In this document: piece by piece, positions 27,050-61,574 of the stretch
How the letters are laid out: the number at the start of each line of letters is the position of its first letter
Position numbering within the stretch: position 1 is the first letter of the stretch
Origin: Phlegmacium glaucopus
Lineage: Eukaryota > Basidiomycota > Agaricomycetes > Agaricales > Cortinariaceae
Length of the DNA stretch: 64,000 bases
Direction: 5' to 3'
NCBI GenBank assembly: GCA_015039465.1
Contig: MU130029.1
Coordinates: 21,994 to 85,993 of the forward strand
The notes under the pieces: model-generated
What the model saw: the letters and a program-made list of their open reading frames with translations, nothing else
The model's database searches: none
What the model was told of the DNA's origin: nothing
Translations under genes and position numbers: made by a program

Positions 27050-27074
27050 AAAAAAAAAAAAAAAAAAAAAAAAA
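27050..27074. other. run of exactly 25 A, probable assembly gap
   Basis: Two other runs of the same length occur at 48,283-48,307 and 55,320-55,344, both at backwards-written blocks. A fixed length of 25 suggests a standard N gap converted to A rather than a biological tract. Confidence 0.75.
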
Positions 27075-27210
27075 GAGCATATTGTGGAAGTTTTAGATGG
27101 AGTTTGAGAGAATTATGATAGGGAGTTCGTGATAAGTCGTCACTCCATATACAGCCAAGTAGCATCATTCGAAGTTACTTAAGTAATTATCTCGCGGTGG
27201 GTCTGCGAAA

Positions 27211-27490
27211 GTGGAACAACTGTCATTGAACCTCAAATCAAAAAGTTGGTAAAAAAGCCCGTCCTACGTATTCTCTCTGCTATTGCTGTCATCGACGACG
27301 AGCGTGCCAATACCGCCACGCCACACTGCACATACACTGAGGCCCTTGAGTTTGTGTTTTCTGATGTTTTTCCCTCTGGACTAAAACAAGACATTAATAG
27401 TATGGGACAGGTAACGCTATTTTATTTTATTTTTAGTATAAGTACTTATATTAATTGGTGTCTTCTTTGTAACAGATAAATTATTTAATG
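27211..27490 (+). CDS. uncharacterised coding exon(s)
   Basis: A clean frame includes IEPQIKKLVKKPVLRILSA and then AVIDDERANTATPHCTYTEA. It ends at a GTAACG donor near 27,413, with a possible acceptor TGTAACAG at 27,477. The composition is that of a globular protein, but I recognise no family. The downstream part is lost in the backwards block. It may belong to a transposon. Confidence 0.25.
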
Positions 27491-27559
27491 GGTCTCGTCA
27501 TACTTTCCACTATAATTTATTTGTTTGGCCTTTAAATGTAACGGGACTACTTTGGGGAT

Positions 27560-29900
27560 GGGAACAATATTCGGGGTGAGTGCAAACGTGCACCACCCAA
27601 CGAATTAACTCGGATGGCCAGGAGATAGCTCCTCTGCCCAAGAACAAAGGAGAAATCCTTCCCTGGCCAGTGGCCAGATAAAGTTGGGTATAGATGATGT
27701 TATTTAAGGTAAAGTGAAAAACCTGTTGACTTTTGGAGAGCAAGTGCTCCCATGTTTATAATTTAAAATTTTTCTCGGGTAAAGCAGTCCAACCGATGCC
27801 CTCTGATGCGAGTGCTCCGTTACGTGATTTGCCATCTTGGCACTGCATGCCCGGTCGACCTAGATGATTAATCTCGATCAAAGTGTGGCATAGTTCTCGA
27901 CGGAGGAAGCGTTCGTGGTACGGGCTAAGTGCTTTGGGGTTATAGACAGTGACGCAGTAACTATAGCGGCAGCAAGAATAATAAGATACGTATAAGCAGG
28001 GGGTGGAGACCTAACCGCGGCAGCAATAACAGCAGGAGCAACAAGATAGGTATCGGGAGACATAGACCTCATGCGAATATCTCAAAGAAGTTTACTGTAC
28101 ACAAGTACCCGCGGGAAGAAGCAATAAGAAATCCCAGAAGATCTTGATGATGGTGTCAGCAAGTCGTTGGAGGATCAGGCTTATGGTCTGTAAGTTTAAG
28201 AGTTCAGCGTCCCGGCGGTAAGGAGAGGTAGTGGGGAGATTGCCTTGGTGTTGGGTAAGTAAGAGGGTAAAGACTTGTACTCGTTGGTGTAAAATAGGAA
28301 CTGAAGCTCGCGTAAGTGGTTCACGTCCACTACTACCAGCTGTAAGTATCCAACCTTTTACTTGGTCCCCCACGTCACTTGGTAGCTGTTGCTTAGGTCC
28401 TCGAAGTTGCTGCACAATACCTTAATTCGTTATGATGTGGACGGTGGCGGTGGCTATAACTTCAACCAGTTATAGTTCAGCCAAGTTTATAAGGTGGTTA
28501 TGGTTGCTTAGAAGGACCTAATCGATCACAGGTCTGGTCGCTTGGTGGGGGACGAATGTAGGCAATTTGCAAAGTTATGGTGATTTAATTAGGTTGCCAT
28601 CGATGCTAAGGAAATCTTTGTAGGAACTGGCTTAAGTAGTCGTAGGATAGTGCGCCCAGGATGCGGCTTTAACGAGTGGTAGGGTAGTTGCTGGCTAAGT
28701 TTTAGGACAGACGTAGGTGGACCTAGGAGAGTATTAATATATCTAATTGCCACATAAGTAGTACAAAGTTGGTGGCCGGGATTTCAGGTACGACATTTGG
28801 GAACGAAGGCACCGTATGTACGACAATTAGAGAATAACAGACGACTTCCTTCCAGTTCAGACCGGTAAAAGCACGAAACAAGTTTGGTAGGCTATAACTA
28901 TTGACGGTGACTTTCATGGGAAGTTTTTTTGTTAGCACGGACTTTTAGGGTTTTTCTGCGTAAACCTTCTCTTCGCAGTTTTTGATGATGCGTTGTAGCT
29001 TGCCAATTCGGTCTTTTATCGGCTTTGTCTTTCTCGTGTTCGTCGGGAAGCTGAGATGCTATTCGTAGGTGGTCAGGAGTCGGAAGGTTATGTCCATTGT
29101 AATAACTGGAAGGCTATTGACGTAGTCGCTGCTACCGGTCGAGTGTATCTACAAGGTTGTAGTAGACAGGCCGGGTATAGTAGGGATAACCCAAACGATA
29201 AGGGAAGGGACGCTATAGTCCTCGTGAGGGCACCTGCCCGAGCTTATTTGACCCAAAGGTAAGGCTCAACCTCGATAATAGTAACGCAAACCTCCTTCCT
29301 AAATCCGGCCGTCTCCCACGATAAGGCTACTATGGCCACGTACGACCCGGATGTGGCGGTTTACATACAAGTGATACTGAGCTCGAAGGTGTTTATAGAG
29401 CTCAAGCACGTTTAAAGTGTATTGTTTGTGTAAAACGTGTTTACCGTCATCCAGACTTTCCTATAGAGGTTGAACTTTCTCTAACCTTGATTGGTGTTGT
29501 AATTTATGCATACCAGAAACATACTTTACCCACGTCTCCTATAGCTACACTATAAATAGGTGAAACTGTACCAACTAACCGTTGATTGGCAGGCAACGTT
29601 AGGTAATTACGTATATTACAAGAACAGTCTTATGGAGTTGTTTGGTTGTTAAGAGTAATGTTCAACTATGGCCGAGAAGACTAGAGTATGCAAGGGAAGA
29701 ATGGGAGAATTTGTAAAAAGAAAGAATGAATTTATGTGTCTCCTAGCGAAGCTGTAGTACAAGGTGTAGCTCAACAAACGTCTGCTTATATTCAGGATAA
29801 ATATCCTGAGTAAGAAAATACCTGGACCCGTATGACGCAGCTCCCCTGAGCATTACGGCCCGCATCGGTGCCGGGGTGTGGGTTCAAGTTAGTATATACT
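27560..29900. other. mirror block 1: sequence written backwards, not complemented
   Basis: Read base by base from 29,840 down to 27,660, the text aligns closely with 40,590-42,300: the protease upstream region, the dehydrogenase fragment with the same 5' junction, the membrane-protein gene and the spacer. For example 27,781-27,840 reversed equals 42,137-42,196 exactly (60 of 60). Below 27,690 reversed it continues into a transposon end (TAGACCGGTGACCGGTCCC). Reversed in place, it supplies the missing left part of the second unit, whose protease is at 37,668-39,938. Frames called here on either strand, including one with PPPAY near 27,980, are accidental. The block limits are approximate. Confidence 0.93.
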
Positions 29901-37465: not shown

Positions 37466-37625
37466 AAAGAGATTCGAAAGATAACATTGCATGGAATGGA
37501 CGTATGTACTAAAAAACCCAAGCCCCAGTAAAAAAAAAGGATGCCCTAGCATAAAAGTAAGTCTAATAAGTCAATCATTATCATCCATTCGAAAGTATAT
37601 ATATGTGCCCAATATCCACAGAGAG
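37466..37625. repeat. spacer of the duplicated unit, copy 2 (right part)
   Basis: It starts GAAAGAGATTCGAAAGATAAC, exactly where the backwards block at 27,690 stops matching the unit. Together they show that the second unit was split here by transposon insertion. Confidence 0.8.
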
Positions 37626-37667
37626 AAACCGAAACCGATGAATATCATAACAAGTCCGAAATTAGTG

Positions 37668-39938
37668 TTATCGGAGGTCGGGCAACTGGGGTTGTCCGTG
37701 CGCCCTAGTAATTGGAGATAAAAGGCTCATCCGAGTAGTTCCTTCGCGACCTTGTCCTTGATCCAACGACGACGGTAACGATTCCGAAGGAATTTCAATT
37801 GAGTTACCAAAACTTCTCCTTCCTCCCAAATTGTTACCTTCATTCACATTACCACCGCCACCAACATCAACAATCGCGCCGACATTACTGCTTTGCGTAC
37901 TCAGCAAGCTGTCTCGTCCAAACTTGGACTCGGGGCCAATCTTCTTAGTCCTCGAAGCTGTACCGACCCCAACCATAGTTTGAGTCGTACTCATCCCATC
38001 GAAGCCCATTAACCCGAACTCGCCTAAATCCTCAGGGTAGGGGATCACGGTCTGGAGAGTACAACTGTCTTGAGGTTGGGATGACTTATATGGTGTGAAG
38101 GGATCGTATCCTTCTGCAGGCGTTTCTTCCTGAGAAAGGAGAGGCACAGCAAGACTAGAGCTCTGTCGGTGGGGAGAAGCTTCGTTCTGAAGCCTAAGAA
38201 GGGTCACGCCGGGAGGAGAAGAAGGCGGACTTGTCGATCGTGGTCGTTGTCTTGGTCCGCAACCAACGATACATCACTTGCTTGTCGTCGATATTGAGTA
38301 GGACTCCAACTTTCAGTCCTAGTCCCACTTTTCGGACCCCACACCTCATCATCCTCATCTTGCTGCGAGCATTCAAAGATAACTTCACTCCAAACTCATC
38401 ATCATCCTTGCCGTACCCGTACCCGTACCCATGCCCGTATCCATAACCAAGAGGTTCATAATCCGTTACCTGCGTCCCGGCGCTACTTATCGTCGTAGTC
38501 GATAGCATCCTGTCTTGCATAGGACTCGCATCCATAAAAGCCACTCTATCCATCTTGAGAGCATCTCCTGCTCGATCCTCCTTACCACCACCACCACCAG
38601 CCTTTTCACGATATTTCCTTCGATAAATGAACCACCGAACGACGAAAAGCAGACAAGAAAGCGCAAAGAACGATAATATCCCAATAAGGACCATAATCCC
38701 AACTGATAATCGCTTCCCGCCTACATTCACCATTGAACTATCTCCATTACCATTCCCATTAGTAGAGATGGGTTGGTTCGACATTCTTGCGGTGTTGAAC
38801 TCCTGCAACGCCTGCGTAGGGTTCGTCAATGACATCAACCCTAACTGTGGTTTTATAGTCTGCAATGCGCCGCCATCCGTTTGGTTATCAGAGGGAGGGA
38901 AAGATCCATCAGGGTTAGGTGTCGTATACGCCATAACAGTATACACATTCCTCATGAACGGAACGCCAAGAACCATATCTTCTACTAAATGTGAATTCAA
39001 TAGTTGAGCATCGGCGATTTGTATGAGTCCGGTACAGAATTGGGATTGATTGTCTTGGGGTGGTTCAGCTGTGAGATCGAGCGGGTGAAGGGGTATTTCT
39101 GGACGGTCGTCGAGTGATATAGTCATGTTGAGTGGTGTATTACATGGAACGTAATCTGAATAAAAAATATTAGAGACTATTGTCGCGAGGGTACAAAAGA
39201 AAGAAACGCACACATCCCATCCTGCGCAGGACGTATCCCAATCGCGCCATAAATCCCATTAGCTATCGCCGTCGTCGTCAAAATCAGAGGAACTCCAGAA
39301 TCCAAGATAGCAATAGGGGAGGTACGTCCACTAATCGATCTGCCCACTTGGATCTGTTGGGTTGTCCCATTGACATACACAGTAATGGCTGTAACAGTAA
39401 CCTTCCAAAATAATGTCCCTGGTGTGTCCCCACTGGCGTTGAATATTGTATGAGACTTGGGTTAGAGACGACAGAAGAGGGGTGTCGTCCGATACCGAAT
39501 ACAGATGGTATTTGAGTTGATCCAGGACGGGAGAGTGCTAGAGAGAGAAATTGGGATGATGGAGCTACGTTGGTAGGAGTGAGTGAAAAGAGGTTGGAGG
39601 CCCAAGCCGCTCCGTCTGGGTTGTTATCTGTTCCTGGCCAGACACGTTGTGCGATAATCGAGTTGAGAGGGAGTGCTAAACCAAGGACACCACTGGGATT
39701 TGTGGCTAAGGCTCGTTTTCAGCGTCTGTCACTGCAGCTGCCAATAGGTGGCTAGGTCCGAAGAGAAAGATGTCGACGGACCAAAAGCTTGGTTATCTAC
39801 CACATAACCCCCAATCGATACTTTATCCCACACATTGGGTCCAGAAGCCGACCCAGATAGACACGGAATGGAAAAGTTTTCACCGGTCTGAATTGAACCG
39901 CTTGGATCGTACATAGTTTGAGGGCCATCGCCTTGCAT
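37668..39938 (-). pseudogene. membrane-anchored aspartic-protease-like protein, copy in unit 2
   Basis: On the minus strand the order is VWDKVSIGGYVVDNQAF (pepsin-type strand), AILDSGVPLIL with the second catalytic motif DSG (about 39,295), an intron at about 39,210-39,155, CTGLIQ...VLGVPFMRNVYTVMAY (end of the pepsin fold), a membrane helix (VLIGILSFFALSCLLFVVRW, about 38,690-38,630) and a long cytosolic tail with YGYGHGYGYGYG. Frame changes near 39,760, 39,715, 39,440 and 38,215 break it. I cannot find the first catalytic DTG upstream, though remnants may extend to 40,324. It is a paralogue of 42,490-44,713. Family A1 proteases cut proteins at acid pH at the cell surface or in vacuoles. Confidence 0.78.
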
Positions 39939-40830: not shown

Positions 40831-41356
40831 ATGTCAAAGTGGATAAATATCACATCGATATTCTGTGCGCCCATTTCATACAAAGACCACACATTTTGAC
40901 ATTGTGGTTAGTTCCAATCTCTTTCAAGTTGGAGATATCCTTCCAGACCTATAGGCCCAGCATGCATCGGTATCATCGGAGTAGCACCCTCTGCCGACCT
41001 AAATCTTTCCTCCAAACGCAATGATAATAGCTCCAACCCGGAATGGAAGCCCAGTTTATTCGAGCGCGTCCACGGGAGTGCTCCTGATATCGCAGGGAAG
41101 GGAATGGAAAACCCAATAGGGATGATTATGGGCCGGACAGATGATGTTGGGACATCTAGGGGAGAAGGAAGCTGCTGACGCGGTTATGAAGGCAATTGAG
41201 AATATATTGAAGGAGGCTAAGGATGCTCAGCTAAGAGGCGAGGACGATTTGTTGACTCCCGATGTGAATGGGAAAGGAACAACGGAGGCGTTGGGAAAAG
41301 CGATCGAAAATGAGATTCTAAAGACAAAAAGGTCAGAAAGGATGTTGTCCGAATAG
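40831..41356 (+). pseudogene. tartrate dehydrogenase 3' fragment, unit 3
   Basis: It begins in the middle of the gene (VKVDKYHIDILCAHF) and lacks the first 62% of the coding sequence, including the GDGIG turn. A 6-base insertion (near 40,930), a frame change before GPACTG-equivalent sequence (near 40,955) and another near 41,127 break it. The 3' part (41,141-41,356) remains open, with DAVMKAIENI and the same C-terminus. It is non-functional. Confidence 0.9.
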
Positions 41357-41407
41357 CAAATCGTAGGCCGTTGTAGTCCGCGTGGAAAAGATGTTGAATT
41401 GAAACGT

Positions 41408-42059
41408 TTAACGGATGTAAGCAGGGGGTGGTTCGCTGGTCTGGACACTAGCTAATCCAGGAAGATTCGTTGGTATTGGTAGAATATTTGTACCGGCTTG
41501 ATATTGACCAACAATATCGGTGGCGGTGGTAGGTGTAGTATTGCTTAATTCCACAACACGTCGTTGAAGCTCCTGGATTCGTTGTCGATGGTTCACTGCA
41601 CCCCCTGGTTCATTTTCCAACCTATGAATTTCGACCATCACCACCTGCACTTGCTGAATGCGCTCCACAAGGTCAAGGGTAAAATGTGGTTGCTCGTGTT
41701 CAGAAATGGGAGAATGAATAGGTGGTGGTTCTGTTGGAGGGATGATGGAGAGGAGTGGCGGCTCTGCGACTCGAGAATTTGAACGCCTGGTATACGGACT
41801 AGGAGGTTGCTGAACGAGTGTGGTAGTAGTTCTAGTAGATCCTAAAGAATAACGAAGAAGGGCGCCCATGAACACATATCATTTCAAGAAACTCTATAAG
41901 CTTACTCCAGATACAGAGAGCTATGGGTGAAACAATAAGGAGAACGACAATAACGACGACGGCAATCCAGAAGTCAGGGACTATTACGCATAGAACAATA
42001 ATAACGACGACGACACCAATGATGCTGAAACAGATCTTGGAGTTTCGTGACTGGGACAT
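41408..42059 (-). CDS. membrane protein with C-terminal PPxY motif, copy in unit 3
   Basis: Exons 42059-41906 and 41841-41408 join in frame to 195 aa. Two adjacent hydrophobic stretches (about residues 10-27 and 30-50) replace the single Val-rich helix of copy 1, so it could form a hairpin or a single longer anchor. A Pro/Arg segment of about 50 residues found in copy 1 is absent. The coiled-coil (ERIQQVQVVMVEIHRLE) and the ending EPPPAYIR are kept. The retained frame, intron and motif suggest it is still under selection or recently duplicated. WW-domain binding through PPxY is an inference. Confidence 0.7.
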
Positions 42060-42236
42060 GGTGCTTGCGAAGGAGACGGCGCTTGATACGGTGTGAAACT
42101 AGCTCTAATTAGTAGATCCAGCTGACCCGTACGTCACGGTTCTACCGTTTAGTGCATTGCCTCGTGAGCGTAGTCTCCCGTAGCCAACCTGACGAAATGG
42201 GCTCTTTTTAAAATGTAATATTTGACACCCTCGTGA

Positions 42237-42430
42237 ACGAGAGGTTTTCGATTGTCCAAAAAGTGAAATGAAACTTATTGTAGTAGATATGGGTTGAAAG
42301 AGATTCGAAAGATAACATTGTATGGAATGGACGTACTAAGAAACCCCAAGAGAAAAGAAGGATGCCCTAGCATAAAAGTAAGTCCAATAAATCGATCATT
42401 ACCATCCAATATATATGTGCCCAATATCTA
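42237..42430. repeat. spacer of the duplicated unit, copy 3
   Basis: The uninterrupted version of the spacer, from GAACGAGAGGTTTTCG through GAAAGAGATTCG to GATGCCCTAGC. It serves as the reference for the transposon insertions in the other two units. Confidence 0.8.
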
Positions 42431-42489
42431 CACAGAGAAACAAAGAGAAAGCGAAATCGATGAATATCATAACAAGTCCGAAATTGGTG

Positions 42490-44713
42490 TTATGGGAGGT
42501 CGGGCAACTGGGGTTGTCTGTGCGCCATAGTAGTTGGAGATAAGAGGCTCATTTTCCCGACCTTGTCTTGATCCGACGATAATGGCGAAGATTCCGAAGG
42601 AATATCAAAATTACCACAACTTCTCCTTCCTCCGTCACCTTCGTTCGCATTATCACCGCCACCAAGATTAACAATCGCGCCCAACATTACTGCTTTGCGT
42701 ACTCAGCAGGCTGTCTCGTCCAAACTTAGACCCAAGGTCAATCTTTTTAGTCCTCGAAGCTGTACCGACCCCAGCCATAGTTTGAGTCGTACCCATCCCA
42801 TCGAAACTCATTAACCCGAACTCGCCTAAATCCTCAGGATAGGGGATTACAGTACGACTGTCTTGAGGTTGGGATGAGTTATATGGTGTAGGATTCTCTT
42901 CATGAGAAAGGAGAGGCACAGCAAGACTAGAACTTTGTCGATGAGAAGAAGAAACAGGAGCAGCTTCGTTCTGAAGCCGAAGAAGGGTGACACCAGGAGG
43001 AGAAGAAGGCGGACTTGTCGATCGTGGTCGTTCTTGGTCTGCTACCAACGGTACATCACTTGCTTGTTGTCGATATTGAGTAGGACTCCAGCTTTCAGTC
43101 CTAGTCCCACTTTTCCGACCCCACACCTCGTCATCCTCATCTTGCCGTGACCGTTCAAAGATAACTTGCGTTTTCTTCACCCCAAATTCATCATCATCAT
43201 CCTTGCCGTACCCGTACCTGTATCCATGCCCGTATCCATAACCAAGAGGTTCATAATCCGTTGCCTGCGTCCCGGCGCTACTTATCGTCGTGGTCGATAA
43301 CATCCTGTCTTGCATAGGACTCGCATCCATAAAAGCCACTCTATCCATCTTGAGAGCATCTCTTGTTCCCTCCTTACCACCACCACCAGCCTTTTCACGA
43401 TACTTCCTTCGATAAATGAACCACCGAACGACGAAAAGCAGACAAGAAAGCGCAAAGAAGGATAATATCCCAATAAGGACTATAATCCCAACTGATAATC
43501 GCTTCCCGCCTACATTCACCATTGAACTGTCTCCATTACCATTCCCATTAGTAGAGATGGGTTGGTTCGACATTCTTGCGGTGTTGAACTCCTGCAACGC
43601 CTGCGTAGGGTTCGTCAATGACATCAACCCTAACTGTGGTTTTATCGTCTGCAATGCGCCGCCATCCGTTTGGTTATCAGAGGGAGGGAAAGAACCATTA
43701 GAGTTAGGTGTCGTATACGCCATAACAGTATACACATTCCTCATGAACGGAACGCCAAGAACCATATCTCCTACTGAATGTGAATTCAGTAGTTGAGCAT
43801 CGGCGGTTTGTATGAGTCCGGTACAGAATTGGGATTGATTGTCTTGTGGTGGTTCAGCTGTGAGATCGAGTGGGTGAAGGGGTATTTCGGGACGGTCGTC
43901 GAGTGATATAGTCATGTTGAGTGGTGTATTACATGGCACGTAATCTAAATAGAAATTTTAGAAACCATCGTTGCAAGGGCAAAAAAAAGAAACGCACATT
44001 TCCCATCCTGCGCAGGATGTACCCCAATCGCACCATAAATCCCATTAGCTATCGCCGTCGTCGTCAAAATCAGCGGAACTCCAGAATCCAAGATAGCAAC
44101 AGGGGAGGTACGTCCACTAATCGATCTGCCCACTTGGATATGTTGGGTGGTCCCATTGACATACACAGTAATGGCTGTAACAGTAACCTTCCAAAATAAT
44201 GTCCCTAGTGTGTCCCCTACTGGCGTTGAATATCGTATGAGGCTTGGGTTAGAGACGACAGAAGAGGGGTGTCGTCCGATACCGAATACAGATGGTATTT
44301 GAGTTGATCCAGGACGGGAGAGTGCTAGAGAGAGAAATCGGGATGATGGAGCTACGTTGGTAGGAGTGAGTGAAAAGAGGTTGGAAGCCCATGCTGCTCC
44401 GTCTGGGTCGTTGTCTGGGTTGTTGTCTGGTATTGGCGGGATATGTTCTGATATAATCGAGTTGAGAGGAAGTGCTAAACCAAGGACACCACTAAAATTT
44501 GTGGCTAGAGGCTCGTTTTCAACGTCCGTCACTGCAGCTGCCAACGGGTCATCAGTTTGCCAAGTCCAAAGAGAAGGGAAGTCGACGGACCCAAAGCTTG
44601 GTTATCTGTCACATAACCCCCAATCGATACATTATCCCACACAATTGGTCCAGAAGCTGATCCAGATAAATACGGAATGGAAAAGTTTTTACCGGTCGGA
44701 GTTGAACCACTAG
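42490..44713 (-). pseudogene. membrane-anchored aspartic-protease-like protein, copy in unit 3
   Basis: This is the better-preserved copy. LAAAVTDVENEPLATNFSG, then GLALPLNSII, AILDSGVPLIL (second catalytic motif), an intron at about 43,997-43,945, YYVPCNTPLNMTISL, FCTGLIQ, VLGVPFMRNVYTVMAY, one membrane helix and a Ser/Gly/Tyr-rich tail of about 200 residues are in one frame from 44,544 to 42,680. A frame change near 44,600 separates it from the preceding NFSIPYLSGSASGP...VSIGGYV part, and another near 42,687 truncates the tail. The first catalytic DTG is not visible. It could still make a truncated membrane protein but probably not an active protease. Confidence 0.75.
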
Positions 44714-45842
44714 GATTGTATAAATGTCCTTTTGTCTGCGAACAACTTGATGTCGAACATGAAGTCGAAGCGATCCACTATGTATTTAAGAAAGAAAGAA
44801 AAAATAAGTCAAATGTTAAAGAGGGTAAGAAGGGGACGCACGAGATCAGAAGAACCGGTATCAACTTGTAATGAGAATTGTTGGTTTGTTGAAATTATTT
44901 TGACAAGAACAGTATATGCACTATTGGATTACAACGGACGGTCGGTTGCCAATCAACCAGAGAGATGAAAAGATGGAGTGGAAAAACGGGCTTTGAGTGA
45001 TGGATCGATGCGCTGGACTCGGATGGAACTTACACATCATACACCCCAGTGCCTACCATCTCCAACGGTAATACTATGCCGCCTTCCCCACCTGTGCCTT
45101 CATCCCTTACATCTAATTCGAAGCCGACCGCCCGTTGTTCTCCTTGCCATCGTCGACGAATTGGCATTTTCACTATAGAGATAGTCTGCTAGAGCCTGTG
45201 TTCAAACTTGATTCCAGCGTGTTCAAAAAAAAAAGGTTGTTTCAAATTCGAATTCAACGACACGAAAGTATTGAAGAAAGATCCATCCAAATCGACTGAC
45301 TGAAAATGAAGATATTGTAGTCAACAAAAGTCGTCATTCGAGATAGTTGCCAATCCGACGAACCCGAACCGAGGTAAATCCCAGCTATTATGAAACTTAC
45401 AGCAGATTCCAGATATGCTTTACTATTCTTCAGGAGATTCAAATTCGAAGGTAGTGCATTTAGAGGGGGGAGACAAGGGACGGAAATCAACCTCAATTTT
45501 TAGTTGCCGTTATTAAAACCGTTCATAATGACCAGGGTTGTCGCACATTTACATAATACAAATTATGGTTACTGTAACGGTTTGTTGTGTTGATTGATCG
45601 TACAAATATAGTTACGGGTACAAGGTTGCCTTAGCTCTATCTCGAGACCCTGCAAATCCCAAGCACTTTGCTTCTCTTGGAACGCCCTCCTCACTTGCTC
45701 CTCACGACCAGGACTATGAGGCTTGAACGACACAGGGAAAATGCGCGGCACACTTACAAATCCACTCTTTTATGTCTCTTCTTCGTCATTGATGTCTGTC
45801 ACTTTTGCACGTCCGGTAGCAGAATCAACTGGGGCGGTCAAC
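44714..45842. other. no gene recognised
   Basis: 44,750-44,960 is the protease upstream region also present at 40,680-40,830. Beyond it are only short frames. Confidence 0.5.
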
Positions 45843-47195
45843 TCATGAACCCAGCCTTGAGAGGACGATGAAAAGGGATGCTTCGGCGCTGCCCAAGCAG
45901 AACCCTCGACCCCAGCCGAATACGTAGCTGGTGCAAAATCCCCCAAGTCGATGTGGGATGCCTACCCATCGGTCCTTTCGGTCGCAAGCCACAGAACTAA
46001 GGCCGGACGTACCCATAATGGTTGGCGGACGACGACGTAGTGTTTCCTTGATGCACGTCACGAAATATGGTCATTTTTCCTCATTCTTAAACTTTGGCAA
46101 TCGTCCATCACGTCCATCCACAGTGCCATCAATTTCAGCGTACGCCCGCGAACGCGGGAGGATTGGAAAGCATAATGAGGACGAAACTCTGCATTGTACT
46201 TGCGGTGGTGTCGCTTCCTGCTTCTAGGATCGTGCCTGCAGTATACGCGAGAAGGAAGCAATCTGGTGTTATGCCAACACCTGGCATGCCCAGAGTGGCC
46301 AGCGTCACTGCGAGTGCGCAAATATGTGGTGTGACAGGACGTGTTGGGTATTCTGTCCTTGATCATGCGTTTGCCTCCGTCAAGCAATCCACCCCAGAGT
46401 TCCGTTTCCCTACAAATTCTGGTCAGCGCGTCCCATATGTGAAATGGCAATGCACATTGGCACACCATTCATGCATTTTCTGTATGGCACTCCGCCACGC
46501 TGCGAGGAAATTCAGAAACTTTCGTAAAATGGGCAAGACATCCGCACTGTATATTTGGGGCGAGGTTGGAAAGTCTGTGGAATACGGAACGCCATACAGG
46601 TAGTTACCAGGTTGTCATACATGGGCAAAGTTGGCTAACACGTCGTAGATCTTGTGCCTGTGTTACAACGTCAATATCACCGTCAACGTCCTCAGAAGCC
46701 GAAATTTTTAGTTTAGGGTGGCGGTCATGATGACCCTTTTCGTCTAACATCACAGGTTAGACTCCCGTCGATCTTTGTGATATGAACTACTCACATATCT
46801 CTTTATCAGTGCGAACCAATGTGTCTTTGGCTCCTCCGAGACTGGATCGCTGAACCTAGACACACAAAAATTGTCACCATGGTTTGTGGGGTCCCGGGTA
46901 ACGGCGCGAGACTCGAGCTCCTGTATGGCGCATAACGCTTTGTCCTATCGCGGAGATGAGGGTCTTACGTGCTGTCTTCTATTCTGTGTCGTATGGATGG
47001 AACACGAGTCGCCGACCTGCGGACAAGATGTCGTGAGCAACATGAGGTGGTGCTCGAGATGGGTAGATCTTGGAGCACTCATGAAGGAGTTCATTCGCTG
47101 CTTATGCCGTGTTAAGGATGTGTGTCGAGTTTGAGGGAAAAGATGGAGCTGTATTTCTGTGTCTATTCTCTGAACTGTGGGTAAGGCCGAAGAAT
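45843..47195 (-). pseudogene. cytochrome P450, 3' part
   Basis: On the minus strand, fragments in changing frames follow P450 order: ELLHECSKIYPSRAPPHVAH, then YGVPYSTDFPTSPQIYSADV and LPILRKFLNFLAAW (about 46,590-46,490), AEIDGTVDGRDGRLPKF (46,150-46,100), CIKETLRRRPPTIMG with the ExxR motif (about 46,050), and FGWGRGFCLG, the heme-binding loop with its Cys (about 45,910). A TGA interrupts just before the ExxR part, several indels shift the frame, and the ExxR-heme distance is too short, so sequence is missing. The N-terminus lies beyond the Gypsy element, at 51,241-51,430. P450s are ER-anchored heme monooxygenases. Confidence 0.8.
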
Positions 47196-47200
47196 GGAAA

Positions 47201-47295
47201 TGTAAGGAACGGAAATTGTTCAGACGCGTATTTCGCAAGCGTATCCCGTTTTAGCAATACGTCACGCGTGACTTTTCCCATTCCGGAAAAGTGAC
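47201..47295 (+). repeat. start of the left LTR
   Basis: 95 bases identical to 50,710-50,804. It contains a hairpin-forming stretch (ACTTTTCC...GGAAAAGT). The rest of this LTR is in mirror block 2. Identity suggests recent insertion, but it covers too short a length to date it. Confidence 0.85.
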
Positions 47296-48282
47296 CAAAC
47301 CGCGTATAGACTGCCAGGTAAGCTACCAAACGGAAAGCAGATCGGGCGTACGTCACCGGTTGACAAGCTGAAGTAGATCTTTATAGCTATCGCTACGGCC
47401 GGACGGTAGTTTAAAACCGCGGCGCACTACTAAGGCCGGACCGTATTAACTACACCGATAAAGACCGTAACACACCACATAAGCGAGCCGACCATTCGAT
47501 CAACAGGACTACCTAAGACTAGCCGCACAAAGCCGACTACAGGTTTGTCGTCCCTGATCCGCTTCCGAACCGTTGCCCAAACAACAAACCAATCCCCAAC
47601 AAAGAAGACTACTACTACTAAGAAGGCAACGACATCCTGATAAGCCGCCAAGACCCATACGGCTTAGACCCATACCGTCTGAAGGTTTCCCGACTATAAG
47701 CAACAAGCACAAACAGATGAAAACATAACAACCGAAAGGCTTCCATAGGCCGGAAGCTTTAACGGAAATCTCTTATAACCAAACTAAATAAAATATTCGA
47801 ACGTGGAGGGAGCGCCACCCGAGGTTCAACATTCACCCATTTGCAAGGCCCCAAGCTTTGCCCATGAAAAACCACTCCCAATCAGTCTTTATAATTAAAG
47901 GCTACCACGCTCGTTACATCAGTGTTCTATAAACTAGTGTTATTGTTAATTCGCGAACACTTTAACATTTACATTATGCAAAAACTATAAACTCTCTAAT
48001 TACGCCATTTCTCCAAAAACTTCAGAGAAATACTCTTACTACATTCTCTAGGCTCCGATCGATTTACCACCCGACAAGGTGACAGGAAGATGTCATTTAT
48101 GCTCGACGAAAATATACATCTTTCCTTTCTTTAAAATTTTACTTTAGAGAATCGCAGACTAGAAATTCTTTTAACAAAAAGAAATTAATTAAAAACTCTC
48201 GTACGATCGAGTAAAAATCGACAGAAGTAAAAGTAAAGGTAGCGCGCTCGGGCAACGACGGGCACGAGGAAAAGGACACGCG
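47296..48282. other. mirror block 2: backwards LTR remainder, leader and gag start
   Basis: Reversed, 47,296-47,352 equals 48,308-48,364 in all 57 bases. Reversed, 48,282 downwards reads GCGCACAGGAAAAGGAGCAC..., the direct continuation of the LTR as seen at 50,805. Between these, the reversed text gives the LTR end (CGAACCCCGGAACGTTTAC), a primer-binding-like GGAGCCCACCG and an open gag start with APKFDGRPASLSIFLDEVEQ. Reversing the block in place therefore rebuilds a continuous LTR-leader-gag. Frames called inside as written are meaningless. Confidence 0.97.
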
Positions 48283-48307
48283 AAAAAAAAAAAAAAAAAA
48301 AAAAAAA
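48283..48307. other. run of exactly 25 A, probable assembly gap
   Basis: It lies between mirror block 2 and the gag coding sequence. The text on either side overlaps by 57 bases after reversal, so no sequence is missing here and the run has no biological meaning. Confidence 0.9.
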
Positions 48308-50092
48308 GCATGCGGGCTAGACGAAAGGCAAACCATCGAATGGACCGTCAGATATGCGCCAAACGAAGATAGAGAGTTATGGCAGATGCAAGACGCTGTA
48401 GCAACGTCAAAATGGGTTGATTTCAAAATGGAATTATTTGATTTGTACCCTGGATCTACGGGCGAACGAAAATACTCGGTAGCCAACCTCACAGCCCTAG
48501 TCGAAGATCAAGCTTTAAGAAATATCCGGAACGCAGAAGAACTAGGAGCATATAGACGCTCGTTCCTAACGATCGCCACATTCCTTAAAAGTAAATCACG
48601 GTTGACGGACAGAGAGATCAGCGGGTATTTTGTGCAGGGGATGGACCCCTCATTCAGAGCCGAGGTACAAAGCCAGCTGAGAGCCGAAAACCCCAGGCAC
48701 CATTCCGACGATCCATACACGCTCGCTGAGATTTCCTCAGCGGCACTATTCGTTTTGACATGTAATTACACGGATTTTCCCCGAAAAGAAATCACTACGG
48801 CTACAATACCAATCAAAAAAGAGACGTATGATATGTCACAAGGCTTCGGAAGCCTGAACATAGGAGCCATAGCATCCGAGATCATGAAACATCTCAATCT
48901 CCATCCGAACACATTAGCCCCTGAAACCGGACCACGGCTACGCAGCAACAATTGTATTTTTTGCTCAGACCCAGCACATTACCTAAACAAATGTCCCAAA
49001 GCTATGGAATACATCCAGAAAGGACTATGTCAAAGGAACAACGAAGGGCAAATTGTCCTGCCAAACGGAGAAAGAATAAGCGCCCGGGACAGCCCAGGAC
49101 GAAATATCATGGAGCGCTTAGACAACTGGCACAAGACCCGCGAGATTCCCAAAGTATCTACAAATTTCATAGGCACCGCAGATACGCACGCGAGATACAT
49201 ATGGACAACTACGCAGGCAGACGAAGACGAGCCAGCCCCCATGACTATGCGAGAAGAAGAAGAACTATTAATTTTAGAAAATTTAGTAGCGTCTACACAA
49301 AAGAAAATCGATAATACTCGCCAAAAGAAATACGGTGGCGCAGCCAAGCCACAAACACAGCAAGGGCCGCCAAAGAAAGTAAACGACATAAGCTCGGCAC
49401 CGGAGCCCCAGTTTCGTTACAGCACGCCAATTGAGGAACCTTCGCTAATCAAAAAGGTGGCAGAGCAAGCCCTAGACATACCTATCACTATCACTACACA
49501 GGAATTGTTATCCATATCGCCCGATGTTAGACGCCACATCAAGGAAAGGTTGACAGTTAAACGAGTTGGCACAGCGGCGTTCGTCGAGACATCAAGCCCA
49601 GAGGATAGCCATCAAATTTTATTGGCCAGCCTGGCAGCAGAAAATAGAATAGTAGCAAGAGACATAGAAGAGCTCCGAGCGGTTGACGTCATAATAGAGG
49701 GATGCGAGGTGGAAGCGACGATCGACGATGGGTCCCAGATATTAAGTATCCGGGAAGATATTTGGCAGAGGTCCGGCCTTCCCTTGCGAGCAGATAAAAC
49801 CATAGTCATGGAATCGGCTAATCTTACGAAAGACAAGACTTTGGGGTTAATTAAGGATCTCAAATTAACAATCGGCGGGTACGATTTCTACGTCCAGGCT
49901 CAAGTCGTCAAAAACGCACCTTATGAAGTTCTACTAGGACGGCCATTCTTTACCCTCACGGAAGCATCGCATCAGCATTACTCAAACGGAGACTCTCGGC
50001 TCACGGTACTGGACCCTAATACTCAGGAATTAATAACCATCCCCACTCGACCCCGAAATCGAAAACGCACCAACGTAACGCAGGGTTTTTAG
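48308..50092 (+). CDS. Gypsy gag-protease
   Basis: The frame is open from 48,308 (GLDERQTIEWTVRYAPNED...). The ATG at 48,386 is not the true start, because the gag start lies in mirror block 2. Visible parts: capsid-like WVDFKMELFDLYPG (typical of fungal Gypsy gag), a CCHC zinc knuckle CIFCSDPAHYLNKC (about 48,955), and a retropepsin with DDGSQI as active-site D-x-G-S and LLGRPF near its end (about 49,935). The frame ends TAG at 50,090-50,092, with GGGTTTT immediately before it. It packages element RNA and matures the polyprotein; pol is mostly missing. Confidence 0.85.
   Translation, partial: ACGLDERQTIEWTVRYAPNEDRELWQMQDAVATSKWVDFKMELFDLYPGSTGERKYSVANLTALVEDQALRNIRNAEELGAYRRSFLTIATFLKSKSRLTDREISGYFVQGMDPSFRAEVQSQLRAENPRHHSDDPYTLAEISSAALFVLTCNYTDFPRKEITTATIPIKKETYDMSQGFGSLNIGAIASEIMKHLNLHPNTLAPETGPRLRSNNCIFCSDPAHYLNKCPKAMEYIQKGLCQRNNEGQIVLPNGERISARDSPGRNIMERLDNWHKTREIPKVSTNFIGTADTHARYIWTTTQADEDEPAPMTMREEEELLILENLVASTQKKIDNTRQKKYGGAAKPQTQQGPPKKVNDISSAPEPQFRYSTPIEEPSLIKKVAEQALDIPITITTQELLSISPDVRRHIKERLTVKRVGTAAFVETSSPEDSHQILLASLAAENRIVARDIEELRAVDVIIEGCEVEATIDDGSQILSIREDIWQRSGLPLRADKTIVMESANLTKDKTLGLIKDLKLTIGGYDFYVQAQVVKNAPYEVLLGRPFFTLTEASHQHYSNGDSRLTVLDPNTQELITIPTRPRNRKRTNVTQGF
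50083..50092 (+). promoter_or_regulatory. candidate -1 ribosomal frameshift site
   Basis: GGGTTTT at 50,083-50,089 fits the X XXY YYZ slippery pattern in the gag frame (..G GGT TTT) and is followed directly by the TAG. Slipping back one base continues as Leu-Gly-Ile-Asp-Asp into an open frame that holds the start of pol. No structure was modelled downstream. Confidence 0.6.
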
Positions 50093-50763
50093 GCATCGAT
50101 GATTCATCCGGAAATAGAGGAGATAGCCCTGATACACCGAGTCAGACATATAAAACAAGTAAAAACATTTCGACCTACCACAGAAACAAGACCGACGAGC
50201 CAGCCAAGCCAAGCCAAGAAGAAAGCCGAGAGTTATTTGTCTACAAAAAGATAGCAGACAGAGTCAAGCCAGTAGCAATGACGCTACCAGAGAAAGATAG
50301 AATCATACGAAACACACCTAGTAAACCATTATCCGAGCTGCCTATATTGCCGATATCACCCCCGGAAATCTTGCCAGGAATTCGACGCACCCTAGAACAA
50401 AAAGAACAGATACCAGTCAACAAAAATCAGTTCTTAAAGTCCGAAGAAGAAAAATTGGCCTACCACCTAATCAAAATTCACGAGACGACATTCGCATGGA
50501 GCGAGACTGAAAAGGAAAAATTGTCAGATACATATTTCGAACCGGCAGTCATTCCAACAATCGAGCACGTACCAAGGGTCTTAAGAAACAGTACAGTACT
50601 TCCCGGAATTTACGGCGGCATAACGAAAATCATCAAATGGCCGAAATTGAAAGAAAGGCTCCTGAAGAGTTGGTTGACTAGGGAGTCAACATTTGTAGTC
50701 CCCTGGAGGTGTAAGGAACGGAAATTGTTCAGACGCGTATTTCGCAAGCGTATCCCGTTTTAG
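50093..50763 (+). pseudogene. Gypsy pol, internally deleted remnant
   Basis: The -1 frame is open from the gag stop. It contains PLSELPILPISPPEILPGIR and, after FAWSETEKEKLSDTYF, VIPTIEHVPRVLRNSTVLPG, the usual lead-in to reverse transcriptase. After GIYGGITKIIK (about 50,640) it jumps to a short tail and the right LTR, so the RT, RNase H and integrase domains have been deleted. Confidence 0.8.
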
Positions 50764-51240
50764 CAATACGTCACGCGTGACTTTTCCCATTCCGGAAAAG
50801 TGACGCGCACAGGAAAAGGAGCACGGGCAGCAACGGGCGCGCGCGATGGAAATGAAAATGAAGACAGCTAAAAATGAGCTAGCATGCTCTCAAAAATTAA
50901 TTAAAGAAAAACAATTTTCTTTAAGGATCAATAACGCTAGTAAATTTCATTTTAAAATTTCCTTCATCCTAGGTATAAAAGTAGCAGAGTTTTATCGTAG
51001 AAAGGACAGTGGAAAATCACCCCTCATTAGCTAGCTTCAGAATCTTTCTCATTCTCAAAAGGAGACTTCAAAATCTTCTTATTACTTTATCTCTAAACAA
51101 CGAATACACACAATTTCGCAGCAACCTAAAACTCGTTAGTGTAAATGCACGTCACGTGACATAAGCGCTTGCACCCTCGGAAACCGACTTTCCGGCTTAC
51201 CCTCTCAAAATCATCTGTTTCGAACTCCGGAACATTTACA
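50710..51240 (+). repeat. right LTR, about 531 bp
   Basis: It starts TGTAAGG after a purine tract and ends TTTACA, so TGTAA/TTACA form the short terminal inverted repeat. A TATA-like GTATAAAAGTAGCAGAG at about 50,970 is a plausible promoter. Reversed mirror block 2 gives a diverged version of its 3' half. Confidence 0.75.
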
Positions 51241-54265: not shown

Positions 54266-54478
54266 TGTTGGAATGGTGGATTCCGCATGCAAGCTGCAAG
54301 GAGCACAGACCAGCAGATATTACTAATTGGTTACTAGTATATAAGGCTTATTTTGTATTGTAGTATAGGTATCTGTTTGCAATGAGTTATATATGTATCT
54401 CAAAAAAAAAAAGTTCATGAACCGAAACTCATTCTTTTACCAAGGTCTTTATTGGGCCTTTTTTTTTTGGTTATGATA
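54266..54478 (+). repeat. LTR fragment (TGTTGGAATGG type)
   Basis: It starts TGTTGGAATGGTGGATTCC and holds a TATA-like GTATATAAGGC. Segments ACCAGCAGATATTACTAATT and AAGTTCATGAACCGAAACTC recur at 57,470-57,640 in the opposite order. Its start is matched, backwards, at 55,345-55,390. Confidence 0.65.
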
Positions 54479-55319
54479 GACTCGAGTCATGTCTCCTCAA
54501 CCTTGAAATTATAAAGCGTCGATCTTGTTATGTATACGATTATGTGAAGAGGACAGAGATTTATACAACGACATTATAAAACGTCGATCTTGTTATTTAC
54601 TTATTCAGAGTTGAAAACTATCTTTCAACCAAATAATTATATGGATCTTGTTATTTACTTATTGATCCATATACAATCTATAATATTGATTCCTTATTTG
54701 CTCACTTGAGTGTAGAGTTGAAAACTATCTTTCAACTCTGAGCGACATGATTTTAGGCACTGATATATTACACTGACAATAGCACTGTGTTTCTATTTTC
54801 CTTACTATTCTACATCATATCTATTTATGAATTATCCTCTAATTGTTCTACTTTGAGCATATGAGGTTGTGTCTCATGATACCTTGATATGCCTCGATAA
54901 TGTCTCACGATACTTCAGGGATACACTACGATACATCACGATATATCACAGACGACCTGTGATGTCTTTATCCCTGGGTACGATACCGTGATACCACGAT
55001 ATCTCGTAATGTATCACCAGGATATCGTCCCGGACCCAAACGACTACATCAGTTTGTTATTAAACCCGGACTCGTACCCGTCGTACTATTACACCATTAT
55101 CTCAACAACAACACACTTCATACACTACTTACTATTCGCTGTTTATCACACTGTTTACCACGTGTTGTAGTTTTTGAGAAGTTCGAACTGTTTTTTCCCA
55201 CTAGGTACTTGTCGTGGGTCGAAACCACTTACCATCGATCGGTACTAGGTAAACACATCTTTATACTCCAGCATGACAAGTATCTGGTCTTATATTGGCA
55301 AACCGTCTCATTCATCGCA

Positions 55320-55344
55320 AAAAAAAAAAAAAAAAAAAAAAAAA
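55320..55344. other. run of 25 A (26 with one neighbouring A), probable assembly gap
   Basis: In the reversed text it replaces the middle of an LTR (between GCAAGGAGCAC and CGCTACTTAC), where other copies have about 85 bases of real sequence. Confidence 0.85.
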
Positions 55345-56784
55345 CACGAGGAACGTTGAACGTGTACCTTAGGTGGTAGGGTTGTGTGAGGGAGTTCGTT
55401 TTCCTCGAACCTTATCCGGTTATTTGTGAGTGACTTTGGATTCAAGGGATTCAAAGGGACGGATTTGTGGACTCTATGGGAGGTTGTTGGTGATGTTGGA
55501 GATTTAGGGAGTCTACGTGAGGGACTTAGAACTTATGAGGGTAGACGTTGAAGGTAGTGAGGTTGAGGATGAGGGTTAGGTTAGTGTTTAGAATAGAGTC
55601 TAGAAGGTCGTTATTACTGTTCACCACTACAGACCGTTACTAGGTCCTTGTTGAAAACGACCGATGTAGTCGTTTGAGGTTAAAAATTAGTATTGTGTGG
55701 TATTGTTTACCCGATTCGGATATCGTAGGGTATCACACCCTCACAACAGATCATGATATATCTGTCGACCACAACGAGACATCGCTATTGTGCCCTGATG
55801 TGACGATGTGTTATGAAACATCGACAATGGTATGGATCAAATACATTCGAAGTAAAAAAAAAGAGTAAAGAAAATTCAAGTTGTCGGGTCGGGATTTGGA
55901 ACGTTTGTAAGTTGTTGTAGTGGTGTAGTGGTCCAGTGTTGTCTAGTGGTGAAGGTGGACGGTGCAGTGGAGCCTGTTGTTGTTGGTTACTTACGTTGTT
56001 ACCATTTATGGAATGAAACCAAAAAAAGAAAGAATCCGGTACCGTGACTGCTGTCGTTGGGGGGGAGTTGTCTCAATAATGATTCGTGATGAGACTGTTA
56101 CCCTTGTCGTTACTGTTTCTACGCAGAAAAAAAAAGAAAAAATTAAAAGAAATAATTGATGTGAGGTGTAACAACCGTTGTAGTTTCGATGTTATTCGTT
56201 ACCTGTTGTATGTTGTTGTATGTTGTTGTATGGTGTTATATGGTGTTATATGGTGTTACATCCTACATGGTGCTGTTCTACTGGGTGTTACAATCCCCTG
56301 TGGGCTGAAATTGGGTTTGGAGTTGGAGTCTTAGTATGTGGGGTGGAAAGGCTGCTGGAGGCTGGAAGGCAGGTTGAGGTGAAGGTAGTGGTGAAATGAG
56401 GCCTTGGGGCATCAAGGTGAGGCTGAGGTTAGGAGGTAAAATGAGGCAGAAAATAAAGATAAAAAGTGTAGTGTGGTGAAGAATAAATTAATAAATTAAT
56501 AATAACATAGTAAGGAAATAAATAAAATATAGAGGCAATACAGGTATAATCATGAATTTGTGGGGGTCGGATCGTCCCTAGGGGTAGGAAAGGAGAAACC
56601 TAGGGGACGATCCATTCAGTGGACATCTATAGAAAAGACTTTATAATAATTGAAACCTAGGGGACGATCGAACTGATTCAGTCGCAGTGTCAACGGGATT
56701 GTAGAGGGTACTGTTTGAAGAGTGTATATGGCGTCCGTGCTAGGATCTTCGTCCTTCACTGTGGTGGCGTTCATGTTACGTGAA

Positions 56785-56984
56785 GACCGTCGTCCACCAC
56801 AAAGAAAACCTTTTTGGATAAAAGTCTTTACAAAACAGTGAAGATTTTGTAAAAAGATTCCAATGTGGTTTAATTAAGGGAATATTCCTTCAACAAAACC
56901 ACATTGAAATCCTTTTTACATTAGTCTTTACTGTTTTGTAAAGGTTTTTATTCAAAAAGGTAGTCTTTGTGGTGGACGACGGTC
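56785..56984. mobile_element. foldback MITE inside mirror block 3
   Basis: Two arms of about 85 bases (GACCGTCGTCCACCACAAAG at the left; its complement at the right) face each other around a centre with TTAATTAAGGGAATATTCC. The arms differ by about ten substitutions. Because it lies in the backwards block, its true sequence is the reverse of what is written; the palindromic design survives reversal. Confidence 0.75.
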
Positions 56985-56989
56985 GTCAC

Positions 56990-57365
56990 TACGTCTCAAA
57001 ACAGGAGAAGTACGAAAGGGTGGGAGGTCATGAACTTACACATGCTCGACTTTAACTACGACGACAACCACGACATCTACCTTCACTGTCTACATACGGT
57101 CTCAAACTTCTACTTCTTTTTACAGGTATAAAGTACCGTACGTAGTTCCTTTGCGAGACAGCAGCAGGTGGTTGGTAATACCCATACAGGCCGAATAAAC
57201 AAGAACGTTGGTTTACGACTATGTTCTGGTTTTGTGCATCCATAGGGTGTAGAACGTCTACTCCTACTGCTCATGGTCCCATACAAATAAGGTTTTCCTA
57301 GATGATAGTAGCCGTTGCAGACCCGATAGGTGTACCTGGGGTGGTGTATGGCTTATTTACTGCTT
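56990..57365. pseudogene. cytochrome P450 fragment, only legible in mirror reading
   Basis: Taking the plain complement left to right (equivalent to reversing the block and reading its minus strand) gives FVLFMLSHPPVLECVRAEID, FEDEEKCPYFMACIKETLCR with the ExxR motif, then IPHLADEDDEYQGMFIPKGS and TIIGNVWAIHMDPTTYRI. This is contiguous P450 sequence from the I-helix end to past the PKG strand, better preserved than the relative at 45,843-47,195, with one stop between the two halves. Confidence 0.8.
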
Positions 57366-57469
57366 CCTACTTGTTACATGTTGTATAGTAATAAAAATAA
57401 AAATAAATTACACATTGTACACATTAATCTGTTACATGTAACATCCATCAACCTGTTATATGCATCTCA

Positions 57470-57660
57470 AAAAAAAAAAGTTCATGAACCGAAACTCATT
57501 CTTTTACCAAGGTCTTTATTGGGCCTTTTTTTATTTGGTTATGATAGACTCGAGTCTAGACCAGCAGATATTACTAATTGGTTACTAGTATATAAGGCTT
57601 ATTTTGTATTGTAGTATAGGTATCTGTTTGCAATGAGTTAACGCTACTTACTATGCCAAA
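57470..57660 (+). repeat. LTR end (permuted copy of the 54,266 LTR)
   Basis: The order here is AAGTTCATGAACC...GACTCGAGTC, then ACCAGCAGATATT...GAGTTA; at 54,300 it is the reverse order of these two segments, same strand. A gag fragment follows directly, so this is probably the 3' part of a 5' LTR. Confidence 0.55.
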
Positions 57661-57742
57661 CGGTTATATTCTGGTCTATGAACAGTTTCCCCATCTCCCA
57701 AATTAATCAAAATGGTACAGTACAATGAGCTCATCTAGAATT

Positions 57743-58090: not shown

Positions 58091-58648
58091 AGGCTGCAAA
58101 AAAAATGATCAAAAACAGTTCAAGTTGACTAAAACTGATATTTAGGTCATACTGTATCATTTCATCTAATTTGGCCACCACATGACCTTTTATTTTTCCA
58201 ACAAATCCCTAAAATCTCCATAAATTGAGAAAAAAATTAATCTGGTGTCAAAAATTGTACTTGACACTCCCCCACCTAATCCACATGGAGTCCAAGCAAG
58301 ATCTGAATAGAGTGCTAGGAATCCAAGTGAAGTCTGAGCTGTCTGAGTGAAGTCCAAGCTACAGTGAATTCCTAGCTGTCCAAACAAAAATTCCTACATC
58401 AGCAAATTCAAGATTTTCCCATAGTTTGTCATAGTCACATCACACATAGTTATAATTTCCCATAGTATCATATAGTCACATCACCATACTTATAGTTCCA
58501 TAGCAGGCACACCAGCACTGTCCAGCAGTGTGTCATCACTCTATCACACTGGCATAGCTTTGTCACCATGTCACATTAGAGCCACACATTTTCATTTAAG
58601 TTAACTAAACCAACCCTAAACAAAGTCTATGCACAAAGTTGATCTTAC
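58091..58648. other. no gene; decayed retroelement sequence
   Basis: The phrase CTACATCAGCAAATTCAAG (58,393) and CATAGTCACATCA words also appear, backwards, in mirror block 3 (near 55,040 and 55,675), so this is internal sequence of the same element type. Confidence 0.5.
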
Positions 58649-61209: not shown

Positions 61210-61574
61210 AGTCACACATCAATGTCTATTAGGGATTGTCAGGGGTCAGAGCCAAATTTTCTCAGATGTACATATTTAAAATCCTTGGTTGAAATAAAAA
61301 CTGTATTACTTTTGTTTCTACTAATATTTTGGACTCAAAAATTTTGTGGAAGACCTTTGGATATCTGAAACTCATGAAGAAGATGCATCTGTCTGTCTGA
61401 TTTTATGAACCATCTCATCCAACACTGCAATATCTTTTTAGGCAGGATCAACTGGACTATAGACTATTTGTAGGTCTTGATACTTTCTTTGCCATCCGCT
61501 CTGAGTTCATCAAATTAGGGACAAGAAATCAGGATATGGCCTGCCTCTTCAGCAGTTGGATCGCTATTGGGAGC
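61210..61574. other. no gene seen
   Basis: A short flank between LTR B and the next gene remnant. Possible upstream exons of that gene lie at 61,440-61,574 but I cannot join them. Confidence 0.4.

What the first reader, a model, noticed from the sequence alone, without database searches (positions are those of the whole stretch)
47296..48282. A 987-base block written in reverse but not complemented restores an LTR and gag when reversed
Reversed base by base, 47,296-47,352 is identical to 48,308-48,364 (57 of 57). The other end continues the LTR exactly as the right LTR does after position 50,804. The reversed text in between holds an LTR end, a primer-binding-like site and an open gag start. 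DNA strands cannot be spliced with reversed polarity, so this must be a data-processing error (gap filling with reverse instead of reverse-complement), not biology. Any annotation inside is wrong as it stands.
Basis: seen in the sequence. Interest (0 to 1): 0.95.

Follow-up and report, generated by a model that had tools for sequence, protein, structure and literature searches.

The report
Backwards gap-fill in a mushroom genome
A stretch of this mushroom genome was written in backwards, most likely by gap-filling software, next to a fixed 25-letter filler, and similar backwards stretches lie beside many such fillers in the same assembly, so this is a data error to correct and not biology.

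Summary
Window 47,296-48,282 is written backwards: reversed (not complemented), it continues the LTR at the exact next base in 6 of 7 other LTR loci held (one is the window's own 3' LTR), and 57 of 57 bases at its far end repeat the start of the right flank. Reversed, it matches 40 of the 44 best Gag relatives; as written, 0 of 44.

Exactly 25 A separate the block from the right flank. Runs of at least 25 A occur 298 times on the + strand of the assembly and 14 times on the other; exactly 25: 157 to 1; exactly 24: 0 to 1. These look like fixed-size gap fillers. Backwards text lies beside 14 of 30 sampled runs, and 7 of 15 in a second sample, against 15 of 732 control points.

The genome is very probably Phlegmacium (Cortinarius) glaucopus, named in a JGI study whose hybrid assemblies were patched by PBJelly. 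Best explanation: long-read extensions were reversed without being complemented, so true overlaps were hidden and a 25-base spacer was left. An assembly artefact, recurring across the genome; program and code step are inferred.

The parts
47201..47295 (+). Left part of the 5' LTR, normal orientation; contig end before the fill
   Evidence: 101-base match 47195-47295 ~ 50704-50804 at 98%; 33 matches in the genome, many of them starting at query base 7
47296..48282 (.). Reversed, uncomplemented fill: backwards it is LTR remainder, primer-binding word, leader and start of gag
47296..47352 (.). 57-base overlap of the fill (backwards) with the right contig start 48308-48364
   Evidence: 57 of 57
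48283..48307 (+). 25-A filler (fixed-size gap spacer)
48308..50092 (+). Right contig: rest of the gag-protease open frame, normal orientation
   Evidence: 594-codon open stretch; Pfam PF13975 and PF13650 above cut-off for 48386-50089
50710..51239 (+). 3' LTR, normal orientation; serves as the ruler for the reversed LTR part (right edge = end of the match)
27050..27074 (+). Another 25-A filler in the window
27075..29823 (.). Reversed block to the right of that filler (right end uncertain, 29823 to about 29900); backwards it encodes an isocitrate dehydrogenase fragment
   Evidence: 27676-28577 reversed ~ 41398-42303 at 91.4%; orientation HMM 27171-29685 with k=4, 27890-29900 with k=3, 27897-29665 with k=5; tblastn 69% over 106 aa reversed, none as written; PF00180 E 2.3e-16
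55319..55344 (+). Third filler (26 A, one probably native)
55049..55318 (.). Probable reversed block left of the third filler (left edge approximate)
   Evidence: 55274-55320 reversed ~ 57640-57686, 97.9% of 47; HMM k=4 and k=3, not k=5; under threshold in the anchored test
55345..57456 (.). Reversed block right of the third filler (right edge approximate, before a direct repeat copy at 57457); backwards it encodes cytochrome P450 pieces
   Evidence: reversed matches of 46002-46254 to 56717-57193; PF00067 E 7.2e-7 and 1.9e-6; HMM k=4 and k=3, not k=5; under threshold in the anchored test

Best explanation
The block is an assembly artefact. A scaffold had a gap inside the LTR/gag part of an LTR retrotransposon between 47,295 and 48,308. 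A sequence extending the left contig by 987 bases, right across the gap and 57 bases into the right contig, was written into the scaffold with its letters reversed but not complemented. In that form it overlaps nothing, so the gap was treated as not closed (PBJelly calls such gaps 'overfilled') and a 25-base spacer was left, which reads as 25 A here. Backwards text lies at about half of the spacers sampled, on the left, the right or both sides. Shown: the reversal, the exact joins, the spacer, its recurrence, host genes affected. Inferred: long reads as the source of the fill, the program (PBJelly or a wrapper round it) and the code step.
For: Exact reversed overlap 57/57. Reversed base 1 follows the LTR at the exact next base in 6 of the 7 other LTR loci held (L002-L005, L007, L008; L006 has no match), out of 33 LTR places in the genome; as written, no match in those 7. 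A 277-base reversed piece is 100% at C83, 99% at C7 and 70-73% at three more places. 40 of 44 Gag relatives match the reversed block, 0 of 44 the written one. Runs of >=25 A: 298 forward, 14 reverse; exactly 25: 157/1; exactly 24: 0/1. Orientation test: 14 of 30 distinct runs and 7 of 15 in a second sample, against 15 of 732 control pairs (first versions). At C13 the left contig's last 675 bases recur backwards, exactly, in the right-hand fill. Backwards host genes: Iso_dh and p450. Contig length 250,399 ties the window to Phlegmacium glaucopus; a study naming that species patched its hybrid assemblies with PBJelly.
Against: The passages seen do not say that this very species was a hybrid assembly. 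No source seen states that PBJelly writes 25 N at overfilled gaps; that is recalled, and the only nearby passage is a default minimum gap of 25 in its summary utility. Runs of N exist in 5 of 70 loci (gaps or withheld stretches), so why the 25-base spacers read A is open. 24 of 45 sampled runs show no reversal by the test. An exact reversed overlap at the spacer edge was found at only 4 of 45 runs within 1.5 kb, and reverse-complement overlaps at as many, 4 of 45; complement-only 1, direct 1, so more than one fault is at work. The third run of the window fails the orientation test.
Confidence: 0.96

Rival explanations
1. The reversal was made by the copy of the genome held for this scan and is absent from the deposited assembly.
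For: The 25-A runs may themselves be Ns rewritten in the held copy, since other gaps read N; no deposited record could be read.
Against: The reversed text starts exactly at a contig end and overlaps the opposite contig. A copy made afterwards has no knowledge of where fills begin and end.
Confidence: 0.04
2. A different gap filler or an in-house patch step, not PBJelly itself, made the error.
For: The fault is deduced from letters; program code was not seen. A wrapper that parses PBJelly output could do it equally.
Against: The study names PBJelly for hybrid patching, and the layout (extension, spacer, unjoined ends) is that of its overfilled class.
Confidence: 0.2
3. A real biological mirror repeat of about 1 kb.
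For: The letters exist in an assembly; nothing else.
Against: No recombination or repair that I know of joins strands with reversed polarity. Backwards text recurs at fixed 25-base spacers, in unrelated genes, and reads as known families when turned round.
Confidence: 0.005
4. Chance or low-complexity match.
For: Mirror matches are common in simple repeats.
Against: 57/57 complex bases, 34 and 82 exact bases on the other side, a 675-base exact case elsewhere.
Confidence: 0.001

Closest known systems
PBJelly 'overfilled' gaps (PMC3504050, passages seen; Trematomus assembly paper PMC9635638, passages seen)
   Same: Extensions from contig ends with no identifiable overlap, left unjoined; inflated assembly.
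   Different: [quoted passage not shown] here a true overlap exists and is hidden because the extension is reversed without complement.
Ordinary inverted misassembly (fill on the wrong strand)
   Same: Wrong orientation of a fill; reverse-complement overlaps occur at 4 of 45 sampled runs.
   Different: An inversion reads correctly on the other strand; this block reads correctly on neither strand as written (both searched on both strands).
Fungal LTR retrotransposon with gag-retropepsin ORF
   Same: LTRs, primer-binding word, retropepsin domain.
   Different: Only about 600 bases lie between the gag-protease ORF end (50,092) and the 3' LTR, too little for a full pol; that concerns the element, not the artefact.

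Membership tests
PBJelly-type overfilled gap | Contig extension entering the gap from one or both ends | tested here: met
   Reversed fill starts at the exact next LTR base in 6 of 7 other loci; left, right and two-sided cases
PBJelly-type overfilled gap | Fixed 25-base spacer where the ends were not joined | tested here: met
   157 forward vs 1 reverse runs of exactly 25 A; 0 vs 1 of exactly 24. That 25 is PBJelly's spacer is recalled, not seen in a source
PBJelly-type overfilled gap | No identifiable overlap between extension and opposite contig | tested here: not met
   As written, a direct 16-base edge overlap is found at 1 of 45 runs (L014), but once reversed the finding's fill overlaps by 57 bases and the C13 fill by 675
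PBJelly-type overfilled gap | PBJelly was run on this assembly | tested here: inconclusive
   The study names PBJelly for hybrid assemblies and names this species; whether the species was a hybrid was not seen (supplements not readable here)
LTR retrotransposon | Two direct LTRs | tested here: met
   47195-47295 ~ 50704-50804 98%; reversed block continues the left one
LTR retrotransposon | Primer-binding site after the 5' LTR | tested here: met
   TGGAGCCCACCGCGAGG in the reversed block; reverse complement followed by CCA at 8 of 8 sites inspected out of 55; primer tRNA not found in those 8
Ty3/Gypsy group | Reverse transcriptase phylogeny and RT-RNaseH-INT order | not tested
   The one ORF of the element that was scanned shows retropepsin models and a sub-threshold DUF4100 only

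The most novel reading that the evidence does not exclude
A strand-handling fault in PBJelly or in the pipeline around it, which the papers searched here do not appear to describe, reverses extensions without complementing them and thereby creates a good share of the gaps reported as 'overfilled'. If so, many hybrid assemblies hold such text, with lost genes, false orphan genes, inflated size and distorted transposon ages.
Probability: 0.3. Interest if true: 0.5.

Novelty: not a real feature. Interest (0 to 1): 0.3.

Why it matters
The block itself says nothing about biology. It does show that this mushroom assembly probably carries reversed, uncomplemented text at roughly half of some 284 spacers (an extrapolation: 298 minus 14 runs; 21 of 45 sampled runs), including pieces of metabolic genes. 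Ordinary alignment misses such text on either strand, so genes in it count as absent, and repeat ages or LTR-pair counts near gaps are unsafe. The spacer plus a backwards reading makes the fault easy to find, and the same test can be run on any gap-patched genome.

Tried and rejected
So no sign of the fault in that collection at that word; few of those assemblies are likely to be PBJelly hybrids (inference).

Orientation HMM: k=3 flags four stretches, among them 58,595-61,210, which k=4 and k=5 do not; k=4 flags three, of which the one at the finding starts too far left (46,889); k=5 flags only 27,897-29,665. Only blocks with further evidence are listed as parts. The third run failed the anchored test (6.4 and 9.8 against 11.25) and rests on reversed matches and Pfam.

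Controls: one control stretch (L053) ends in 2,150 N, which lowers the null a little; the test was repeated without them (threshold 11.41, 15 of 732 control pairs above it; before, 16 of 753 at 11.25). The counts of runs did not change (14 of 30, 7 of 15). Control points overlap one another, so no P value is given. The first sample is the first places of a list plus the window's three runs, the second was picked by hand from the list; neither is random. Test loci L013 and L036 contain N in one flank.

Edge overlaps (16-mers at offsets 0-12, flanks of 1.5 kb, 45 runs): reversed 4 (L017, L027, L068, the finding), reverse-complement 4 (L016, L021, L024, L030), complement-only 1 (L017), direct 1 (L014). 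With longer flanks the L035 run (read as L042) shows reversed and complement-only overlaps too. L017 lies in a short repeat, so its overlap is weak evidence.

As-written copies elsewhere (7 rows besides itself): 4 rows at C90, C217 (two) and C31 have a 25-A run in their locus; the other C31 row belongs to the same backwards stretch; the C7 row abuts a run of N and the C106 row (54 bases, 86%) has N about 320 bases away.

Whether the 25 A stand in the deposited record: an as-written frame of the window runs through the spacer, but among 76 proteins no near-identical record of this locus came back (only the candidates sharing most words were scored). Not settled.

Dropped rows: L015 (T run) gave no row because of its position filter; L034 (T run) scored 11.0, under threshold; L038 equals the window's first run, so that call's 15 of 31 rows is 14 of 30 distinct runs.

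Literature: passages only of PMC3504050, PMC7550596, PMC6240028, PMC5689209, PMC8848313 and PMC9635638. The search listings show no title or abstract start that describes reversed, uncomplemented gap fills; one search found no paper; the one paper holding 'reversed but not complemented' (PMC8920891) was not opened and by its title concerns regulatory elements. Only open-licence PMC papers are searchable; program issue trackers are not.

Full report
What was checked. Window 47,296-47,352 read backwards equals 48,308-48,364 at 57 of 57 bases. The block is 987 bases long and ends at 48,282; exactly 25 A follow (48,283-48,307), then the right flank. The block's right end, read backwards, continues the LTR as the 3' LTR does after 50,804: 34 exact bases, one difference, 82 exact bases, 76.8% over 453 columns.

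Other copies settle the orientation. The LTR start has 33 matches in the genome, of which eight loci were held. Of the seven besides the finding itself (L002-L008; L002 is the window's own 3' LTR), six continue into the reversed block at its first base, directly after the last LTR base (L002, L003, L004, L005, L007, L008; L006 does not), while the block as written matches none of the seven. A 277-base piece from the leader and gag start, reversed, is found at C83 (100%), C7 (99%) and three other places (70-73%). Of 76 Gag relatives the best 44 were tested with their first 220 residues: 40 match the reversed block, most of the eight best ending at its last base, and 0 match the written block. 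The reversed block has a frame open for up to 140 codons, in the phase of the right flank's open frame.

The signature. The assembly (G000, 60.5 Mb, 259 contigs) has 298 runs of at least 25 A on the + strand against 14 on the minus strand; exactly 25: 157 against 1; exactly 24: 0 against 1; at least 33: 18 against 6. Natural poly-A should be about even between strands and graded in length (inference). These runs look like fixed-length spacers, some lengthened by neighbouring native A. Whether they are N in the deposited record is unknown; runs of N, gaps or withheld stretches, occur in 5 of 70 loci.

Recurrence. A strand-symmetric 5-mer model, trained on window parts away from the runs and on five control stretches, was used to ask whether text next to a run looks backwards; each control part was scored with itself left out. 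With N removed from the controls, 14 of 30 distinct runs pass the 99th percentile of the control sides (9 left sides, 7 right sides) and 7 of 15 in a second sample from other contigs (4 left, 5 right), against 15 of 732 control pairs (first versions, where the second sample was tested at the threshold fixed by the first). At C13 the last 675 bases of the left contig recur backwards, exactly, in the right-hand fill: the mirror image of the finding. Exact edge overlaps within 1.5 kb are few, and reverse-complement ones are as many as reversed ones (4 of 45 each; complement-only 1, direct 1), so wrong-strand fills or hairpin reads may exist beside the reversal. As-written text of the block recurs at seven other rows: four have a 25-A run in their locus, one more belongs to the same backwards stretch at C31, the C7 row abuts a run of N, and the 54-base C106 row has N about 320 bases away.

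Host genes. Backwards, the block right of the spacer at 27,050 (27,075 to about 29,823) encodes a fragment of isocitrate dehydrogenase, 69% identical over 106 residues to the ORF at 23,693; as written it gives no match (PF00180, E 2.3e-16). Backwards, the block right of the third spacer gives two cytochrome P450 pieces (PF00067, E 7.2e-7 and 1.9e-6). Four as-written frames of the same blocks give no family. The third spacer fails the orientation test.

Source. A protein of the window is 99% identical to one of Phlegmacium glaucopus on a contig of 250,399 bases, the length of contig C24. A study that names Cortinarius glaucopus states that JGI hybrid assemblies were made with ALLPATHS-LG and patched with PacBio reads by PBJelly (PMC7550596, passages); that this species was one of the hybrids was not seen. 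The PBJelly paper defines overfilled gaps as extensions without identifiable overlap (PMC3504050, passages); a later paper found 28,377 such gaps in one assembly and suspected hidden scaffolding errors (PMC9635638, passages).

Mechanism. Shown: text reversed without complement, starting exactly at a contig end and running into the opposite contig, next to a 25-base spacer, with backwards text beside many other spacers. Inferred: that an extension step reversed letters for one orientation without complementing them (or complemented without reversing), that this hid true overlaps, and that the program was PBJelly or a wrapper. The rate of roughly half fits an error tied to one of two orientations, but test sensitivity also limits the rate, so this is only a hint.

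Limits. No raw reads, program code or deposited record could be read. Edges of the blocks at the first and third spacers are approximate. The reversed block was studied as a separate piece; it was not put back between its flanks.

Noticed in passing
L016, L021, L024, L030 (spacer at about 1502): At 4 of 45 sampled spacers the flank edge recurs as its reverse complement on the other side (324 and 248 exact bases in L024), which suggests a second fault such as wrong-strand fills or hairpin reads.
   Followed up: partly
L047 (G000:C7:494760-497894): Backwards text abuts a run of N with no 25-A spacer in the locus, so reversal may also affect partly filled gaps.
   Followed up: partly
54307-54488 and 57457-57640: Two neighbouring pieces of 83 and about 100 bases occur in swapped order on the two sides of the third spacer, as if cut from a tandem repeat.
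   Followed up: no
50093-50709: Only about 600 bases separate the gag-protease ORF from the 3' LTR, too little for reverse transcriptase and integrase, so this copy is short or collapsed.
   Followed up: no
genome-wide: The word CCTCGCGGTGGGCT occurs 55 times against 7 for its backwards control; the 8 sites inspected are all followed by CCA in mostly differing contexts, which suggests one primer tRNA shared by several LTR families.
   Followed up: partly
42296-44720 and 37465-39911: A 2.5-kb direct repeat at 87.8% identity, not studied.
   Followed up: no
23693-24586 and 40831-41838: Isocitrate dehydrogenase ORF and a second, diverged copy in normal orientation; a third copy is in the reversed block, so the family seems locally duplicated.
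   Followed up: partly
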